35,843 bases of DNA. It comes from Planctomycetota bacterium (GTDB lineage Bacteria; Planctomycetota; B15-G4; JADJEK01). The position numbers and the translations under genes were made by a program. Shown one piece after another: positions 1 through 6,687 of this stretch. Position 1 is the first letter of the stretch; every line of letters begins with the position of its first letter. Under the pieces are notes generated by a model, which ran no database searches, was not told the DNA's origin, and saw nothing but the letters and a program-made list of their open reading frames with translations. The stretch is from assembly GCA_016213895.1 (NCBI GenBank), contig JACQZJ010000072.1:21064-56906 (forward strand), written 5' to 3'.

Positions 1-354
1 GGCAACGTCTCCGAGAACGTGGTGGGCACGCGCGGCCGCGCCGATCCGTCCGGCTCGATCTCCGTCTTCGGCGAGAGCTGGTGGCGCTACGAGGGGCAGT
101 CTCCCAACCCGTACGTCCAGGAGCACGTCGACCTGATCGCTTCGATTCGCGCCGGCACGCCCTTGAACGAGGGCAAGACCATCGCCGACAGCACGCTCAC
201 CGCCATCATGGGCCGCATGTCGGCCTACACCGGCAAGGAAGTCACCTGGGAACAGGCGCTCGAGTCCAAGCTCGACCTCACGCCGCCGCACTACGAGCTG
301 AAGGAGCTGCCCGTCGCCGAGGTGGCGATGCCGGGGCGCACCGAGCTGATCTGA
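1..354 (+). CDS. Gfo/Idh/MocA family oxidoreductase, C-terminal fragment
   Basis: The frame is open from the first base of the window, so the gene begins upstream; 117 residues and a TGA stop are visible. The piece matches the C-terminal end of Gfo/Idh/MocA NAD(P)-dependent oxidoreductases of the planctomycete type: a segment reading NPYVQEHVDLIASIRAG, then a helix with the IADSTLTAIMGRMSAYTG pattern, then a charged tail with paired prolines. These enzymes oxidise or isomerise sugars, inositols or related polyols through an N-terminal Rossmann fold, which is outside the window, so substrate and catalytic Lys/His cannot be judged. The short hairpin 9 bases past the stop may end its transcript. 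The family is quite sure; the substrate is unknown. Confidence 0.85.
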   Translation, partial: GNVSENVVGTRGRADPSGSISVFGESWWRYEGQSPNPYVQEHVDLIASIRAGTPLNEGKTIADSTLTAIMGRMSAYTGKEVTWEQALESKLDLTPPHYELKELPVAEVAMPGRTELI

Positions 355-362
355 GCCTCTCC

Positions 363-380
363 GCGCCCGTCCGCGGGCGC
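363..380 (+). terminator. Hairpin after the oxidoreductase, possible terminator
   Basis: A perfect 7-bp stem (GCGCCCG / CGGGCGC) with loop TCCG lies 9 bases after the stop of the first gene. No T-tract follows, so it is at best a non-canonical terminator or a 3'-end stabilising hairpin. Confidence 0.35.
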
Positions 381-743
381 TCGGAAGATCCCGCTGGCCG
401 GGACCTCGCGCATGATCGCCGGCGGGCGCAGTCCTCGAGGAGCTTCCGGCCGAGGCCAAGCGTCCCGCGCGGCATCCGTGCGGCGGCGCCACCGTGCCGT
501 CGCGGCCGTTGCCGGAGGAGCCGTCCACGAGCGTGCCGGTCGCCTCGCGGCTGGCCTCGCGCGCTTCCAGGGGGGCGTCGCGGGTGGCGGCGAAAGCCTC
601 CGCATGCTGATGCTCCTCGCCGGTGAAGAAGTACGCCGCCGCCGCGACCGGCGCGCACCCTGACACAAGCGGCGCGCACAGCGCTGAACGCGCCGGCCGT
701 TCCGGGGCACGCAGGGTCCGTCGCACCGAAGAGCGGGTTCACC
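381..743. other. Intergenic stretch without a supported gene
   Basis: Several frames are open here on both strands, as expected from the high GC content, but none has a start with a ribosome binding site, a recognisable motif or natural composition. One minus-strand frame around 480-665 reads in a somewhat protein-like way (FFTGEEHQHAEAF and onwards) and could be an old gene remnant. I could not assign it. Confidence 0.4.
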
Positions 744-772
744 TTGACGCAGAGAGAGAGAGAGAGTACATT
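744..772 (+). promoter_or_regulatory. Sigma-70 type promoter with an (AG)8 repeat as spacer
   Basis: The -35 hexamer TTGACG (744-749, 5 of 6 consensus bases) is separated by exactly 17 bases from the -10 hexamer TACATT (767-772, 4 of 6). The spacer is one C followed by eight AG dinucleotides. Transcription would start near 779, leaving about 27 bases before an ATG at 806 that has GGAG 6 bases upstream. One unit gained or lost by slippage would give 19 or 15 bp spacing and should weaken the promoter sharply. Slipped-repeat promoter spacers are known, for example the TA tract at the Haemophilus influenzae hif locus. That this one varies is inference. Confidence 0.6.
751..766. repeat. Dinucleotide microsatellite (AG)8
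   Basis: Eight uninterrupted AG units. No other dinucleotide tract of this length was noticed in the window, and it falls precisely between the two promoter hexamers of the following cassette. Confidence 0.95.
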
Positions 773-805
773 CCTGTCTCGCGGGAACCAGAATCGGAGA
801 AACCC

Positions 806-2628
806 ATGGAGATTCGAGAGGTCTTCTGACCCTGGTCGTCCTCACGACGCTGGCGCTCTTCGCTCGGGCTGACGACGGCGACATTGAGTGTCCGCTGGGC
901 GCGGACCTGCTCGAGACGAACGGGACCATCCACCTCGCCGTACCACAGGACTTCTTCGCCCCAGGATCAGCCGCGTATACTGGCGACGTCCCGGCAACTG
1001 GCGACCTGGTCAACACCGCCGGTCCTTACGAGCTTGGGACGACGAGCCTGATCGTGCAGCGCAACACCCTGGTCTCGCTCCCTCTGCCGCAGGGCCAGCC
1101 CGCGCACGTCGTGACGACCGTGTCCGACTTCGCCTTGTCCGGGACGCAGCGGATCACGGTGCTCGTCAACGGCGTCCCTCAGGAGTGGGCTGTGTCCGCC
1201 ACGCTCTCGTCTCGAACGACGGCCTACGGCTCGTACGACCTGACCAGGACGAGCCTCTCGTCCGGCACCTTCACCGCGAACATCGAGCTGCCTGTTACCC
1301 TGATCTTTCGCCGAGGCGGCCAGGCGAAGACCCTGGACCTGGGCGTCGTGCCGCTCCTCACGTCCAGCGGCACGTGGACGACCATCGCCACGTCGCCTAC
1401 CGCGGCGCTCGCCGCGTCCAAGCTGCAGCTCGGGGTTGCACTCACGGGCACGCTCACCTCGACGGCGCTCGACCTGTCCATCTCCCCGGCACATGTGGAT
1501 CCGAATCGGCCGGGGCCCACGTACGTCGATCCGACGGCGGCCGTCGATCCCGGGGTGGGGAGCCTCGGACGCTACTGCTCGATCGGCGCCGGAGCGAGCA
1601 TCGCCGCAGGCGCCGTGATCGGACCGCACGCGGTGATCGGCCCGAGCGCGCACATCGGCGTCGACGCGGTCATCGGCGATCGCGCGTCCATCGGCACGCG
1701 CGTCGTCGTGGGCGACGGATCGGCCCTGAGCTCCTTCGTGGTCGTCGCCTCCGGCTGTACCATCGGAGCCGCTGCCGTTCTTGGCACCGGCGCGAACCTC
1801 GGAACAGCCACCCAGGTCGGTGACGGCGCCTCGATCCTGGGTGACTCGGTGCTCGAGGGCGGCTGCACGCTCGGCAACAACGCGCGCCTCGGCCGGCAGG
1901 TGCGCGCCCGGGCGGGCGCGACCGTCGGTGCGGGCGTGGAGATCGCCTCGGGCGCGACCGTTCCGGCGTCGCCGGCGCAGCTCACGGACATCGTCCGCTG
2001 CATCTTGGACGACGGCTCCGAGGAGTACCGGTCGCTGCCAACCTCGAGCTGGCCTCCGGAGACTCCCCCGGCCGTCATTCAGCAGGGCTCATCGCCCAGT
2101 GTCGCGGGCTCTCTTGCCGCTCCGCCCATCATGGCCGAGCATGGCCCTATGGATCCCGGAGATCCGCCGGCGGGCTACGAAGACCTCGCGGATCACATCG
2201 GAAAGGACATCGCACCTCCGGGAAATGGCGGGACGGGCCAGCCTTGCGGCGACGACTATCGGTGCGGTTGGTACGCGGAGCAGCTTCGCATCAAGCTCGA
2301 AAGCAAGGGCTACGACACGACGTTCACGGTCTGGGATAGGCTGAATCCGGACTGGAAACAGGGGAGCTCAGCGCCAAAGTGGCTCCGATCCCACTGTCTG
2401 ACGGACATCCACTGGCCAGGTGGGAACATGGTGTTTATCGAAGCCCAATTTATCGAGGGGCACGGAATCAACGCGCGCACGAAAGAGCTCGACGGCAACA
2501 ACGATCACAAGATCGCAGCTTTCGTCGGCACTCTTCCCGACGCGACGAGTGACGGCAACAACCGCATCGCAGTCTTCGAGAGCCGGGCCGAAGCAGCAGC
2601 AGCCGGTGCTGTATGCAATGGCAACTGA
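806..2628 (+). CDS. Secreted left-handed beta-helix protein with a Cys/His C-terminal domain; 5' end out of frame
   Basis: The long frame is open from 748 to 2628 but has no ATG, GTG or TTG before GTG 1054. From about 826 it encodes a hydrophobic stretch (LTLVVLTTLALFARA, then DD) that looks like a signal peptide. The only well-placed start, ATG 806 with GGAG upstream, is in another frame and stops after seven codons at 827. So either one base is missing near 809-828, or CTG 826 (GAGAGG at 816-821) initiates, or the gene is off or broken. Domains: an N-terminal beta-rich part; about 145 residues of hexapeptide repeats (roughly 1528-1970, many IG and VG turns); a Pro-rich linker; and a C-terminal domain of about 120 residues with CGWYAEQL (Cys codon 2263) and DIHWPGGN (His codon 2410). 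The latter recalls the Cys...His order of transglutaminase-like or papain-like folds. That comparison is tentative. The first lipoprotein gene overlaps its end by 16 bases. Confidence 0.6.
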
Positions 2629-3173
2629 CGACCGGGCTGAGTTGGTCTCACCCGCTCATCCTGCTGGCGTTGGGCGCCCTCTTGGGCTGCTCCGGGGAGA
2701 TGCGCGACCCGTACGAGCCCTACCCGCCAGACAGCTGGGAGCGGCGCCTGCCACCCGCGCTACAAGTGGAGCCCATGGAGCGGCTGGCGCACGACCGGTT
2801 TGGAGTGGTCCCGGATGCCTATCAACCGGAGGCCCAGGCGCTTCTCGCCGCGAACAACCATGTCCTGCTATCCAACGAGCAGGCCGCGCGGTACGGTCTT
2901 CCCGCGCCGACGGGTCCCGGCGCTGACGGTCTGGTTGTCTTGCTGCGTGGCTTGGAGTACGAGCGCGACGAATCGGGTCTAGGCAAGGCAGACGGATTCC
3001 ATGTGTATTGGAGGGACGGGATCGTATCGGTGGAGCACTCGACGATCCGAACGCGTGAGACGCCACAGCGACGCCGCGCGATCGTCGCGATTCTACCGTG
3101 GGCGCCGCGAGACACGTACGCGGTCCCGCTGAGCGTGTTTTGTGATAGAGTCAAGTGGCCGTGGTTCCCGTAG
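2613..3173 (+). CDS. Lipoprotein, first tandem paralogue
   Basis: Hypothetical lipoprotein of 186 residues. The N-terminus has a hydrophobic segment ending in the lipobox LLGC (Cys 26) followed by Ser, suggesting lipid anchoring in the envelope. The mature part shares with the next gene the blocks RDPYEPYPPDSWER, VVPDAYQPEAQALLAA, RYGL-x-APTGPGA, LLRGLE and VYW-x-DG. No catalytic motif is seen and I do not recognise the family. The ATG lies within the last codons of the beta-helix gene (16-base overlap), which implies co-transcription and translational coupling. A small envelope lipoprotein coupled to a secreted protein, in two diverged copies, fits an immunity or inhibitor role, but nothing in the sequence proves that. 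Confidence 0.75.
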   Translation: MQWQLTTGLSWSHPLILLALGALLGCSGEMRDPYEPYPPDSWERRLPPALQVEPMERLAHDRFGVVPDAYQPEAQALLAANNHVLLSNEQAARYGLPAPTGPGADGLVVLLRGLEYERDESGLGKADGFHVYWRDGIVSVEHSTIRTRETPQRRRAIVAILPWAPRDTYAVPLSVFCDRVKWPWFP

Positions 3174-3737
3174 ACGAAGTTGGTCTCGGAGGCGTCAATG
3201 GCGCGGCTGGTCGCTTGCACTCGCGTACTCCTGATGCTGGCGGTGGGCGCCCTCTCGGGCTGCTCCGGCGAAGGACGTGACCCGTACGAGCCGTACCCGC
3301 CGGATAGCTGGGAGCGGGCCCTGCCGACAGGTTCGGGGAAGGGCATGGAGAGGCTCGCGGACGAGCGGTTCCGAGTCGTCCCGGACGCGTATCAGCCGGA
3401 AGCGCAGGCCCTGCTTGCCGCGAAGTCGCATGCGCTGCTTTCCGAGGATCTCGCCAGCCGATACGGACTTGCCGCTCCGACCGGGCCCGGGGCAAAGGGC
3501 GTCGCGGTGCTTCTACGCGGCCTGGAGGCCGAGAAGGACGGATCCAAGCTAGGCTCTCCGCACGGCTTCAGCGTGTATTGGAAGGACGGGTGCGTGGATG
3601 TGGTGCACTGTGCAGATCGAATGCGATTCACGCCGAGCAGGCGCCGCGCGCTGATCGCGGTCCTCCCGTGCCTGCCAAAGGAAGTGTACACGACGGCCGA
3701 TATCGTGATCTTCGGAGGTATCAAGTTGCCGCCGTGA
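2640..3737 (+). repeat. Tandem gene duplication, unit about 538 bp
   Basis: The 10-mer AGTTGGTCTC occurs at 2640-2649 and again at 3178-3187, each time just before or within the signal-peptide region of one lipoprotein, and coding similarity follows in both copies. The spacing of 538 bp defines the duplicated unit. The 5' part, around the lipobox (GGGCGCCCTC-x-x-GGGCTGCTCCGG), is nearly identical at DNA level, while the 3' part has diverged. Confidence 0.7.
3198..3737 (+). CDS. Lipoprotein, second tandem paralogue
   Basis: A 179-residue paralogue of the preceding lipoprotein, 24 bases downstream. ATG 3198 is chosen because GGAGG sits 5 bases upstream; an upstream in-frame TTG at 3180 lacks this. 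The lipobox is LSGC with Cys 22. The first two thirds are strongly similar to the first copy, including the DPYEPYPPDSWER and VVPDAYQPEAQALLAA blocks. The C-termini differ: this copy ends in a hydrophobic IVIFGGIKLPP, the other in a Trp/Phe-rich tail. Such tail divergence would fit different partner specificity, which is speculation. Function unknown. Confidence 0.75.
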   Translation: MARLVACTRVLLMLAVGALSGCSGEGRDPYEPYPPDSWERALPTGSGKGMERLADERFRVVPDAYQPEAQALLAAKSHALLSEDLASRYGLAAPTGPGAKGVAVLLRGLEAEKDGSKLGSPHGFSVYWKDGCVDVVHCADRMRFTPSRRRALIAVLPCLPKEVYTTADIVIFGGIKLPP

Positions 3738-4087
3738 ACCTGCCACGCTCCGGATTCCAGACCGATGCCCGATGATCGCGACCGAAGCTCCGGTCACGAT
3801 GATCAGGCCTGCAATCCAGCGAGCGTAACGGATCGCGACAAACCTCCTACGAGAGGGCAGGGGTCGCTGGGAGATGTCCCGTTCCCCGTTGGAACTCCAA
3901 GGCGGCCGGGTAGTGGGCGACATTACGCGGCCACTCCCTTGCTGTCCAGGGCCATCCGGAGCGCGACGCCCAGGAAGGGCATATCCTGAGAATGACGTGA
4001 TCCGGCGGTGCGACCTCCGGGACGCACGCAGGCCTTGCCGCCGGCACGCTCAGACGCGGAGCCCCGGAACGGCTCACCGCGTCGCGG
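3738..4087. other. Intergenic region between convergent transcription units
   Basis: No convincing gene. A minus-strand frame around 3760-3870 encodes a short hydrophobic segment (IAGLIIVTGASVAIIG) after basic residues. A ribosome-binding-like AGGAGG is present there on the minus strand, but no proper start codon is well spaced from it, so a broken small membrane protein gene is possible but not claimed. Confidence 0.4.
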
Positions 4088-4102
4088 CCCCGCGCAGCGG
4101 GG
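4088..4102 (-). terminator. GC hairpin downstream of the Trm112-like gene
   Basis: A perfect 6-bp stem CCCCGC / GCGGGG with a 3-base loop lies 24 bases beyond the stop of the minus-strand gene ending at 4126. There is no T-tract. A second short inverted repeat, GTAGC / GCTAC (4110-4129), overlaps the stop codon itself. Together they could mark the 3' end of the minus-strand block. Confidence 0.35.
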
Positions 4103-4125
4103 ACTGCTCGTAGCATCCCGCCGGG

Positions 4126-4392
4126 CTACGGGCTGCCGAGAGCCCCGCCCTGGGCCAGCCAGGGCGGCGCGTTCGGGAGCCCCCGCCGCCGCGCCTCCTC
4201 GCAGAGCTTCTCCGCCGCCTGCTCGTCCAGCCGCTCCGCCTCCTCGACCAGCATGTACGGGATGCCGTCCACGATCGGGAACTTCAGGCGCGAGGTCGGG
4301 CAGAAGAAGAAGCCCTCGGCCTCGAAGTAGATGAGCGGGGCCTTCGACTCCGGGCAGGCGAGGATGTCGAGAAGCTCCGGGTCGATCGCCAT
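4126..4392 (-). CDS. Trm112 family protein
   Basis: An 88-residue protein of the Trm112/YcaR type. It begins MAIDPELLDILACP and continues with a beta-rich core containing a single CP pair, then RLKFPIVDGIPYMLVEEAERL, the signature block of the family, and a short charged helix. Eukaryotic and archaeal Trm112 activates RNA and protein methyltransferases. Bacterial homologues such as E. coli YcaR are often linked to envelope genes and their role is unclear. The first of the zinc-ligand pairs is reduced (ACPES), so metal binding is doubtful. ATG 4392 has GGAG 8 bases upstream. It is the last gene of the minus-strand block, 65 bases after the DUF1501 gene, and may be co-transcribed with it. Confidence 0.8.
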   Translation of the reverse strand: MAIDPELLDILACPESKAPLIYFEAEGFFFCPTSRLKFPIVDGIPYMLVEEAERLDEQAAEKLCEEARRRGLPNAPPWLAQGGALGSP

Positions 4393-4457
4393 GTGCGTGC
4401 TCCAGCGGCCCTTGCGCCGCGCTCCACTCTCGCCGGCCAGGCCGGCCGTGTCAACCG

Positions 4458-5495
4458 CTACGCCAGGAAGCCGAGGGGCGCGAAGGCGTTGCCGAGGATC
4501 GGCGCGGCGGGAACGCGGAACCAGCGCTCGAGGAGCGTGGCGTAGACGCTGCGGAAGTCGGTGGTGACGGCCAGAGCGCCGTCCTCGGCCGCGTCCGCGA
4601 GGCGCGGCCGCGCGCCGTGAAGGCCCCCGGCCACGCGCGCGCCCAGCACCAGCACGGGGTTGGCCGCGCCGTGCTCGGTGCCTCCGCTCGCGTTGACCGG
4701 CAGGCGCCGCCCGAACTCGGAATAGACGAAAAGGAGCACGCGCTCGAGCAGGCCGCGCTCCTTCAGGGTGGCGAAGAACGCGCAGAGCGCCTGGTCCAGC
4801 TCGCGCAGCAAGAATGCGTGGCGGCGCGCCTGGCAGGAGTGCGTGTCGAATCCGGCCATGCTCACGTGAACGGCGCGCAGCCCGGGCGCGCCGGCCAGGT
4901 GGGCCGCCGCCCTGGCCAGGCAATCTTCCGGCCGCGTGTCAGGAGGCAGGCCGAGGGCAGCGGCGCGGCGCTTCTCGCCTGCGAGGGCAAGCGGCACGCG
5001 CGTTCCTTGCATGGCGACGGCCCGCGGAGCGCCGCCCTCGTCCTCGAGGCCGTCCAGGAAGCGCCCGATCCAACCGGTCGTCGCGCGCGCTCCTGCCGGC
5101 CGCGCGCCGTGCCAGACCTCGGCGGAGAGGATGTGCGAACGTTCCGCTCCCGGGTAGCCCACGCCCTCGATGATGGCCACCATCCCCTCGTCGAAGAGCC
5201 GCTTCACCCCCGCCAGCTCGGGGTGCAGGCCGGTCCGATCGTCGAGCGCGAGCACCTCGCGGCTCGGCACGGCGAGAGCACCCCGCGCCCGGTAATACGC
5301 GTCATCCGCGTACGGCACGACCGTGTTCAGCCCGTCGTTGCCGCCGCAGAGCTCGAGCAGCACGAGGGCGCGCTCGCCGCCGCCTTGCGCGCCCGCCGCG
5401 CGCTCGCGGCCGAGCGCGGCCGGCAGGAGCGCCGCGCAGGCGGCCGCGCTCTTCAGGAACGCACGGCGCGGGATGGAGACCGGAGTCGCGACCAT
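4458..5495 (-). CDS. DUF1501 domain protein with twin-arginine signal
   Basis: 345 residues. The N-terminus has the twin-arginine motif PRRAFLK followed by an alanine-rich hydrophobic segment, so export through Tat is expected. DUF1501 hallmarks follow in order: LVLLELCGGNDGLNTVVPY, ERSHILSAEVWH, MAGFDTHSCQ, YSEFGRRLPVNASGGTEHG, and a final TTDFRSVYATLLERWF block. The family has an alkaline-phosphatase/sulfatase-like fold, is abundant in planctomycetes, and has no settled function. It is commonly paired with a DUF1800 or DUF1549/1553 partner, and none is adjacent here. At 345 residues it is shorter than many members (about 400-450). A GGAGGG lies just upstream of the ATG. Confidence 0.85.
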   Translation of the reverse strand: MVATPVSIPRRAFLKSAAACAALLPAALGRERAAGAQGGGERALVLLELCGGNDGLNTVVPYADDAYYRARGALAVPSREVLALDDRTGLHPELAGVKRLFDEGMVAIIEGVGYPGAERSHILSAEVWHGARPAGARATTGWIGRFLDGLEDEGGAPRAVAMQGTRVPLALAGEKRRAAALGLPPDTRPEDCLARAAAHLAGAPGLRAVHVSMAGFDTHSCQARRHAFLLRELDQALCAFFATLKERGLLERVLLFVYSEFGRRLPVNASGGTEHGAANPVLVLGARVAGGLHGARPRLADAAEDGALAVTTDFRSVYATLLERWFRVPAAPILGNAFAPLGFLA

Positions 5496-5592
5496 CGGCC
5501 CTCCGAGGCGGCGGGAGGGAAGACCCCGCCTCCTGCAGCCTACGCTCCGCGAGCCGGCCGCAGGAGAGGCCTTGGAGCGGCACGTGGCGTTC

Positions 5593-6687
5593 TCAGCCGC
5601 CGGCCGGCTCCTCGGTCACGGTGGGACCGGCGATCACCTGGAGCCACTCCCCCACGTGCGCGGGGCGAGACGCCTGGTCGAGGCGGTCGCGCGCATGTTG
5701 CACGCGCGCTTCCGCCCAACCGAGGGCCTCCTTCAGCTCCTGGTACTCCTGCGCGAGCAGGGCGAGCTGCGTGGCCTCCTGCTGCTCCTTGGCCACTCCT
5801 TCCGCCAGGCACGCGCGGCGGCTCTCGGCAAGCACCAGGTCGCGCTCCACGGAGAAGAGCTCCCTCTCCAGGTCGGCCCTGCGGGGATTGGGACGGGGCC
5901 AGGCTGCGCGGGCCGAAACGAACATCGTCTCGAGCGTCTTGAGTTCGGCCCTCTTCCGGTTGATCTCCGGTATGGGCTCCTTGAACTCGGCTTCCAGCGC
6001 CGTGAGCTGGCTGCGCGCTCTTTCGATACTCTCCTCGAGCGAGGCGATGTCGACCGGCGCCGACCCCGCCATGACCTCCGCCGGCTCCCGGGCGATCGCC
6101 TCGACCAGGTAGTCGCGCAGGGCGCGCTGCCCGGCGAGATCGAGATCGAGACTCTGCAGCATCGACGCCTGGTCCATCAGCGACCCCCTGACTTGGGCGA
6201 GGCGAGCCTCGGGATCGAGGGCCACGTGCTGCTCGACAAAGGACTGCAGGGCGGCGTGGGCCCTGGAGTACGCCTCCGCCGCCTCTTCGTACTCCCGGCG
6301 CGCTGCGTCGAGGTGCTCGCGCGCCAGGACGCGGTCGCTCGGCACGATGGACTTCAGGTGCGCCAGCAAGACCTCCATCCCGGCAGCCACCGCCTCCTTG
6401 TCTGCGCCGCGCAGGTCGAGGGTCAGGATCTCCCTGCCGGGCGTGGCCACGGTGAGCACCAGCACTTCATGCGGGAACACGTCGGCGGCTTGGCTCGCCA
6501 CCGGCACCATGCCCGCGCGCACCGAGCCCAGGTAGGCCGGGTCGGCAAGAAAGGCCGCGACCTCCGCGGCCGAGTAGCCCGGCTCGTTGCGCACCTGGAG
6601 CGTGACGCGCGCCACGGTCGTCTCGGCCCGGGCGAGGCCCGCGAGCAGCAGCAGCGCGATGGGCAGACAGAATGAGGACGTTCTCAT
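5593..6687 (-). CDS. Secreted coiled-coil protein, possibly Wzz/GumC-like
   Basis: 364 residues with a clear signal peptide (CLPIALLLLAGLARA, cleavage before ETT). An alpha/beta N-terminal part follows (about 25-115, with PGREILTLDLRGADKEAV), then long heptad-rich helices up to about 340, and a short C-terminal GEWLQVIAGPTVTEEPAGG. The order of a compact N-terminal domain followed by long coiled coils and a Pro-rich end recalls the periplasmic part of Wzz/GumC chain-length regulators, but the usual flanking membrane helices and the C-terminal hydrophobic anchor are absent. Function is therefore uncertain. It starts 19 bases after the coupled sigma-factor pair, with GGAGAG upstream, and is probably in the same operon. 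Confidence 0.6.
   Translation of the reverse strand: MRTSSFCLPIALLLLAGLARAETTVARVTLQVRNEPGYSAAEVAAFLADPAYLGSVRAGMVPVASQAADVFPHEVLVLTVATPGREILTLDLRGADKEAVAAGMEVLLAHLKSIVPSDRVLAREHLDAARREYEEAAEAYSRAHAALQSFVEQHVALDPEARLAQVRGSLMDQASMLQSLDLDLAGQRALRDYLVEAIAREPAEVMAGSAPVDIASLEESIERARSQLTALEAEFKEPIPEINRKRAELKTLETMFVSARAAWPRPNPRRADLERELFSVERDLVLAESRRACLAEGVAKEQQEATQLALLAQEYQELKEALGWAEARVQHARDRLDQASRPAHVGEWLQVIAGPTVTEEPAGG

What the first reader, a model, noticed from the sequence alone, without database searches (positions are those of the whole stretch)
744..772. Promoter spacer made of an (AG)8 microsatellite
TTGACG and TACATT are exactly 17 bp apart, and 16 of those 17 bases are AG dinucleotides. 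Slippage by one unit would move the spacing to 15 or 19 bp, so this looks like an on/off or graded switch for a cassette of secreted and lipid-anchored proteins, comparable in principle to the TA tract of the Haemophilus hif promoter. The repeat and hexamers are seen; variability is inferred.
Basis: partly seen in the sequence, partly recalled or inferred. Interest (0 to 1): 0.75.

Follow-up and report, generated by a model that had tools for sequence, protein, structure and literature searches.

The report
Promoter spacer made of AG repeats
In an uncultured bacterium, the gap inside a gene switch is made of a slippery AG repeat set exactly to working length, one of about 17 long slippery tracts in this genome, most at the starts of exported-protein genes, which suggests random on/off switching in a lineage where I found no published report of it.

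Summary
It is not chance. Random flanks give such a straddling hexamer pair in 0.03% of trials, and AG runs in the sampled genome end at 10 bp, then jump to 15-18 bp. The site sits 33 bp before a start codon with GGAG, in the modal -10-to-start distance bin for this genome.

The switch reading gains independent support. The genome carries about 17 long tracts, most at the 5' ends of signal-peptide genes. A paralogous cassette has (GA)9 at the same place. A second gene family has TTGACA/G beside poly-C tracts of 6 to 17 bases, with spacings of 12, 18 and 21 in three paralogues. Across the phylum, poly-C promoter spacers exceed a reversed control 4-fold and peak at 16-17 bp. One orthologous pair has C10 versus C11.

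Three cautions. Variation in repeat number at this locus was not observable. The paralogue keeps the tract but has a poor promoter (TTGCGA, 14 bp, GACAAT). The first gene, as assembled, stops after seven codons, one base short of the paralogue's frame.

Verdict: probable promoter-spacer contingency locus. The principle is known; the AG unit and the lineage appear new.

The parts
744..749 (+). -35 hexamer TTGACG (5/6)
751..766 (+). (AG)8 dinucleotide tract, 16 of the 17 bp of the promoter spacer
767..772 (+). -10 hexamer TACATT (4/6)
779..780 (+). predicted transcription start (inferred from -10 position only)
   Evidence: inference from the position of the -10 hexamer
796..799 (+). Shine-Dalgarno-like GGAG, 6 bp before the ATG
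806..829 (+). ATG and seven codons in all, then TGA: start of gene 1, out of frame with its body by one base relative to the paralogue on contig 5
826..2628 (+). Body of gene 1: signal-peptide-like N terminus and a left-handed beta-helix (Hexapep, E 1.4e-18) domain; 72% protein identity and dN/dS 0.41 to the contig 5 paralogue
2613..3173 (+). Gene 2: lipoprotein-type protein (LLALGALLGCSGE); no Pfam match
   Evidence: translation read
3198..3737 (+). Gene 3: second lipoprotein (MLAVGALSGCSGE), sharing the motif RDPYEPYPPDSWE with gene 2; no Pfam match

Best explanation
A sigma-70 promoter for a three-gene exported/lipoprotein cassette whose -35/-10 spacer is a slippery (AG)8 tract. Slipped-strand mispairing at replication would add or remove 2 bp, moving the spacing from 17 (working) to 15 or 19 (weak), so a fraction of cells would switch the cassette between high and low transcription. 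It would be one member of a repertoire of simple-sequence contingency loci in this genome. Shown: the anatomy, the outlier tract length, enrichment of such promoters before genes, and paralogous or orthologous length differences at sibling loci. Inferred: hypermutation and the expression change at this locus.
For: Exact anatomy and chance estimate 3.4e-4. The 9/12 sigma-70 site class occurs at 153/Mb upstream of genes on the sense strand, against 57 on the antisense strand, 8 in coding sense and 12 in shuffled sequence; the 20-40 bp bin is the modal -10-to-start distance, and here it is 33. Long AG tracts are outliers, with nothing at 11-14 bp. The paralogous cassette on contig 5 has (GA)9 at the same place. 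The DUF7948 family has TTGACA/TTGACG beside poly-C tracts, with 12, 18 and 21 bp to a shared ATCCTTG block. Poly-C promoter spacers across 179 phylum genomes: 87 versus 20 control, spacing peak 16-17. An orthologous promoter pair in one genus has C10 (19 bp) versus C11 (20 bp) before a secreted protein. Most long tracts in the genome lie at 5' ends of signal-peptide genes.
Against: No second strain or read data: repeat variation at this tract is unobserved. The contig 5 paralogue keeps the tract, but its best hexamers are TTGCGA and GACAAT at 14 bp, so either it is in an off state or the promoter is not conserved. The exact arrangement is unique among 392 phylum genomes. Gene 1 is frame-broken at its start in this assembly, so a working promoter may drive a broken first gene. 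Sixteen bp is a modest length for a dinucleotide tract.
Confidence: 0.55

Rival explanations
1. The tract is a 5'-leader element, not a promoter spacer: transcription starts further upstream, and tract length tunes translation or mRNA stability, as may happen at the poly-C loci on contigs 103, 211 and 26.
For: In those three loci a TTGACA-16..18-TA(T/A)NNT promoter lies 54-55 bp upstream of the tract, and the tract ends 42-44 bp before the ATG. The AG tracts end 39 bp (window) and 42 bp (contig 5) before theirs. The contig 5 paralogue keeps tract and position but not good hexamers.
Against: No sigma-70-like site lies upstream of the tract in the window. RNA folding of the leader is unremarkable (z -1.2 with the tract, 0.4 without). 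No Rfam match.
Confidence: 0.22
2. A neutral microsatellite: a chance expansion next to a promoter or beside a decaying duplicated cassette, with no selected switching role.
For: Gene 1 is frame-broken as assembled. The arrangement is unique in the phylum sample. Hexamers are not conserved in the paralogue.
Against: The tract is present at the same position in a paralogue that differs by 26% in DNA and evolves under purifying selection (dN/dS 0.41). Long tracts in this genome concentrate at starts of exported-protein genes.
Confidence: 0.18
3. Assembly artefact: tract length and the frame break reflect consensus errors in a metagenome assembly.
For: The genome is in 218 contigs with completeness 95.5%; the contig 5 copy stops 45 bp upstream of its tract.
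Against: Two independent contigs carry the tract. The rest of gene 1 is an uninterrupted frame of about 600 codons. Short tracts of 16 bp are well within read length (general knowledge).
Confidence: 0.05

Closest known systems
Haemophilus influenzae hifA/hifB promoter, (TA)9-11 tract (described in PMC2651432)
   Same: Dinucleotide tract in the promoter region; changes in repeat number were proposed to alter the -10/-35 spacing of surface-protein genes.
   Different: TA versus AG unit; bidirectional pilus promoter in a host-adapted pathogen; variation shown there, not here.
Neisseria porA, opc and fetA homopolymer spacers (described in PMC2791445)
   Same: Unstable tract between -35 and -10, graded transcription of surface proteins.
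   Different: Homopolymers, not a dinucleotide. The poly-C spacers found here in the same phylum are the closer match to these.
Neisseria nadA distal TAAA tract (PMC2791445)
   Same: Repeat upstream of the gene changes promoter output.
   Different: Tract lies upstream of the core promoter and acts through NadR operator spacing, not through the -35/-10 distance.

Membership tests
Promoter-spacer phase-variable loci (hif, porA, opc, fetA type) | Simple repeat lies between recognisable -35 and -10 hexamers at workable spacing | tested here: met
   5/6 and 4/6 hexamers, 17 bp
Promoter-spacer phase-variable loci (hif, porA, opc, fetA type) | Repeat number varies between cells or strains of the species | not testable with these tools
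   No second genome of the species and no reads; no relative outside this genome encodes the gene. Only a paralogue differs, 18 bp versus 16 bp
Promoter-spacer phase-variable loci (hif, porA, opc, fetA type) | Change of spacing changes transcription | not testable with these tools
   Needs reporter or RNA data
Promoter-spacer phase-variable loci (hif, porA, opc, fetA type) | Controls a surface or exported product | tested here: met
   Signal-peptide-like protein with Hexapep domain and two lipoproteins read from sequence; surface exposure itself untested
Promoter-spacer phase-variable loci (hif, porA, opc, fetA type) | Hexamers retained around the tract in the nearest homologue (supporting, not strictly defining) | tested here: not met
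   Contig 5 paralogue: TTGCGA-14-GACAAT
Genome with a repertoire of simple-sequence contingency loci | Several long tracts, far over chance, concentrated at 5' ends of exported-protein genes | tested here: met
   about 17 long tracts; eight upstream of signal-peptide genes and three in or near first codons. Concentration judged by reading each site; no formal enrichment test

The most novel reading that the evidence does not exclude
An uncultured, probably planctomycete, lineage uses a broad set of slippery tracts (AG and poly-C in promoter spacers, poly-C in leaders, poly-C/G and CT in first codons) to randomise expression of exported proteins, with the AG promoter spacer as a previously unrecorded type of switch.
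Probability: 0.4. Interest if true: 0.75.

Novelty: new variant of a known kind. Interest (0 to 1): 0.56.

Why it matters
Slippery-repeat switching is known mainly from host-adapted pathogens. A repertoire of such loci in an environmental, uncultured lineage, with promoter spacers, leaders and first codons all used, would show that bet-hedging by replication slippage serves free-living bacteria too. It also gives short, precisely placed tracts whose lengths can be counted in existing metagenome reads.

Tried and rejected
Orthologues of gene 1 in 58 relatives and in GTDB contigs: none; only hexapeptide-repeat cross-matches. The same TTGAC-(AG)5-TANNNT pattern in 392 phylum genomes: only this site. 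(AG)8 in relatives: nearly absent, except one genome with very long repeats. An Rfam element: none. Leader hairpin: no signal. Programmed frameshifting at GTC TTC TGA: considered; the shift needed is -1 and the site is not a slippery heptamer, so rejected by inspection. CTG start at 826: possible but unsupported. Papers on phase variation in planctomycetes: none seen in three searches of the open library, of which only the top-ranked titles were read.

Full report
Observation. The sequence is as described: TTGACG at 744-749, one C, (AG)8 at 751-766 and TACATT at 767-772, a spacing of 17 bp. It is the only sigma-70-like site of at least 9/12 matches in window 1-6000, both strands, where shuffles give 0.2. 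Putting random flanks of local composition around an (AG)8 tract gives such a pair in 0.000345 of trials. In 1.37 Mb of the same genome (71% G+C), AG/CT runs fall off from 20 to 10 to 6 at 8, 9 and 10 bp, are absent at 11-14 bp, and reappear as four runs of 15-18 bp; the whole 5.5 Mb assembly has only those four loci with (AG)6 or more. The tract is therefore an expanded microsatellite, not a chance run.

Is it a promoter? The gene caller (my own script, codon usage trained on this genome) gave 647 upstream regions. Sites of the same class occur at 153/Mb there on the sense strand, against 57/Mb on the antisense strand, 8/Mb in coding sequence and 12/Mb in shuffled sequence. The commonest distance bin from -10 to start codon is 20-40 bp; here it is 33 bp. 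A GGAG lies 6 bp before the ATG at 806. No other sigma-70-like site lies between the upstream gene (ends 354) and the tract. I put the promoter at about 0.75 (judgement).

What it drives. Gene 1 encodes a signal-peptide-like N terminus followed by a hexapeptide-repeat (left-handed beta-helix) domain (PF00132, E 1.4e-18). Genes 2 and 3 encode lipoproteins that share the motif RDPYEPYPPDSWE and match no Pfam family. So 'cassette of secreted and lipid-anchored proteins' holds, from sequence features alone. But the ATG at 806 reads seven codons and stops; the body of gene 1 is in another frame, one base short of the paralogue. The remaining 583 aligned codons are uninterrupted and evolve at dN/dS 0.41 against the paralogue, so the break is recent, an assembly error, or the gene starts elsewhere. 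I could not decide which.

The paralogue. Contig 5 carries a second copy of the cassette (74% DNA identity over 2.2 kb), with an intact first gene (MKIQGVFLALVVV...) and (GA)9 ending 42 bp before its ATG, against 39 bp in the window. The tract is thus retained and differs by 2 bp (18 versus 16). The hexamers are not well retained: the best reading is TTGCGA-14 bp-GACAAT. That could be an off state, one unit short of 16 bp, or evidence that the promoter reading is wrong. This is the strongest point against the claim. No orthologue exists in 58 related genomes or in the GTDB contigs scanned.

Genome context. Searching all C/G runs of nine or more and reading each neighbourhood shows a repertoire. 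Upstream of signal-peptide genes: window AG; contig 5 GA; poly-C on contigs 103, 211, 26, 11, 30 and 56. In or near first codons: (CT)8 in frame on contig 117 (MRLSLSLCLGLG); C14 on contig 170 and G10 on contig 5 at 18113, both out of frame as assembled. Others (contigs 39, 67, 102, 111, 139) lie within genes or are unclear. Contigs 103, 211 and 26 share a leader: TTGACA-16..18-TA(T/A)NNT, then 54-55 bp, then the poly-C, then 42-44 bp to the ATG. There the tract is in the leader, not the promoter spacer; this is the main rival for the window locus.

Spacer tracts elsewhere. Four paralogues of a secreted DUF7948/beta-propeller family (PF25778 E 3.9e-53, for the contig 30 copy) carry poly-C close behind a -35-like hexamer. 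Contig 128 has TTGACG, C8 and 18 bp to a shared ATCCTTG block; contig 56 has TTGACA, C11 and 21 bp; contig 133 has a degenerate ATGACC, C6 and 12 bp; contig 30 has TTGACA and C17 joined to the start codon. Lengths therefore do differ between copies in one genome, though the -10 of this family is weak. In 179 genomes of the phylum, TTGACN-C7+-TANNNT gives 87 matches against 20 for the reversed pattern; spacings peak at 16 (30) and 17 (32) of 85 distinct sites, and C10-C12 tracts have 17-21 bp. Two species of one genus (G176, G015) have the same secreted-protein gene behind TTGACAAATG-C10-GTTTGTACATT (19 bp) and TTGACAGCG-C11-ATCTTGTACATT (20 bp): promoter and tract kept, length changed. These are related loci, not this one, but they make a slippery promoter spacer an ordinary device in this phylum rather than a one-off coincidence.

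Taxon. Its NuoH is 96% identical to a metagenome-assembled record titled Phycisphaera mikurensis isolate FI88_71_9 and 70% to an unnamed bacterium. I take it as probably planctomycete; the title is not a reliable species name.

Comparison with known systems. Tracts between -35 and -10 are known for porA, fetA and opc (PMC2791445), and the (TA)9-11 tract of hifA/hifB was proposed to act the same way (PMC2651432). The window locus works like these if it varies. As to membership, anatomy and type of product are met, variation and expression change could not be tested, and hexamer retention in the nearest homologue was tested and not met. I file it as 'works like', not as a proven member. I found no paper describing slippery-repeat switching in planctomycetes in the open library; absence there is weak evidence.

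Verdict. Observation confirmed; interpretation partly supported and strengthened by context. Probability that it is a functional spacer switch: 0.55. The wider repertoire is the more interesting result.

Noticed in passing
window 806-829: The first gene's start codon opens a frame of only seven codons; the body is one base out of frame relative to the contig 5 paralogue.
   Followed up: partly
L209 4240-4252, L215 3979-3989, L217 4244-4256 (contigs 103, 211, 26): Three exported-protein genes share a conserved promoter and leader with poly-C of 11-13 placed 42-44 bp before the start codon.
   Followed up: partly
L213 4179-4192 and L081 18113-18122: C14 and G10 tracts in the first codons of probable exported proteins, both out of frame as assembled, as in translational phase variation.
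   Followed up: partly
L015 3670-3685 (contig 117): (CT)8 tract encodes LSLSLC in an apparent signal peptide directly after a GGAGGAAAGTGATG start.
   Followed up: partly
L014 4101-4129 (contig 39): An (AG)7 tract runs directly into a run of 15 G inside what reads as a methyltransferase-like coding region, probably breaking its frame.
   Followed up: no
L397 and L398 (G176, G015): Orthologous secreted-protein promoters in two species with C10 and C11 spacers and an identical TACATT -10.
   Followed up: partly
L106 4830-4870 (contig 30): Poly-C of 17 joined directly to the start codon, apparently by loss of the 110-bp leader that its paralogue on contig 56 has.
   Followed up: no
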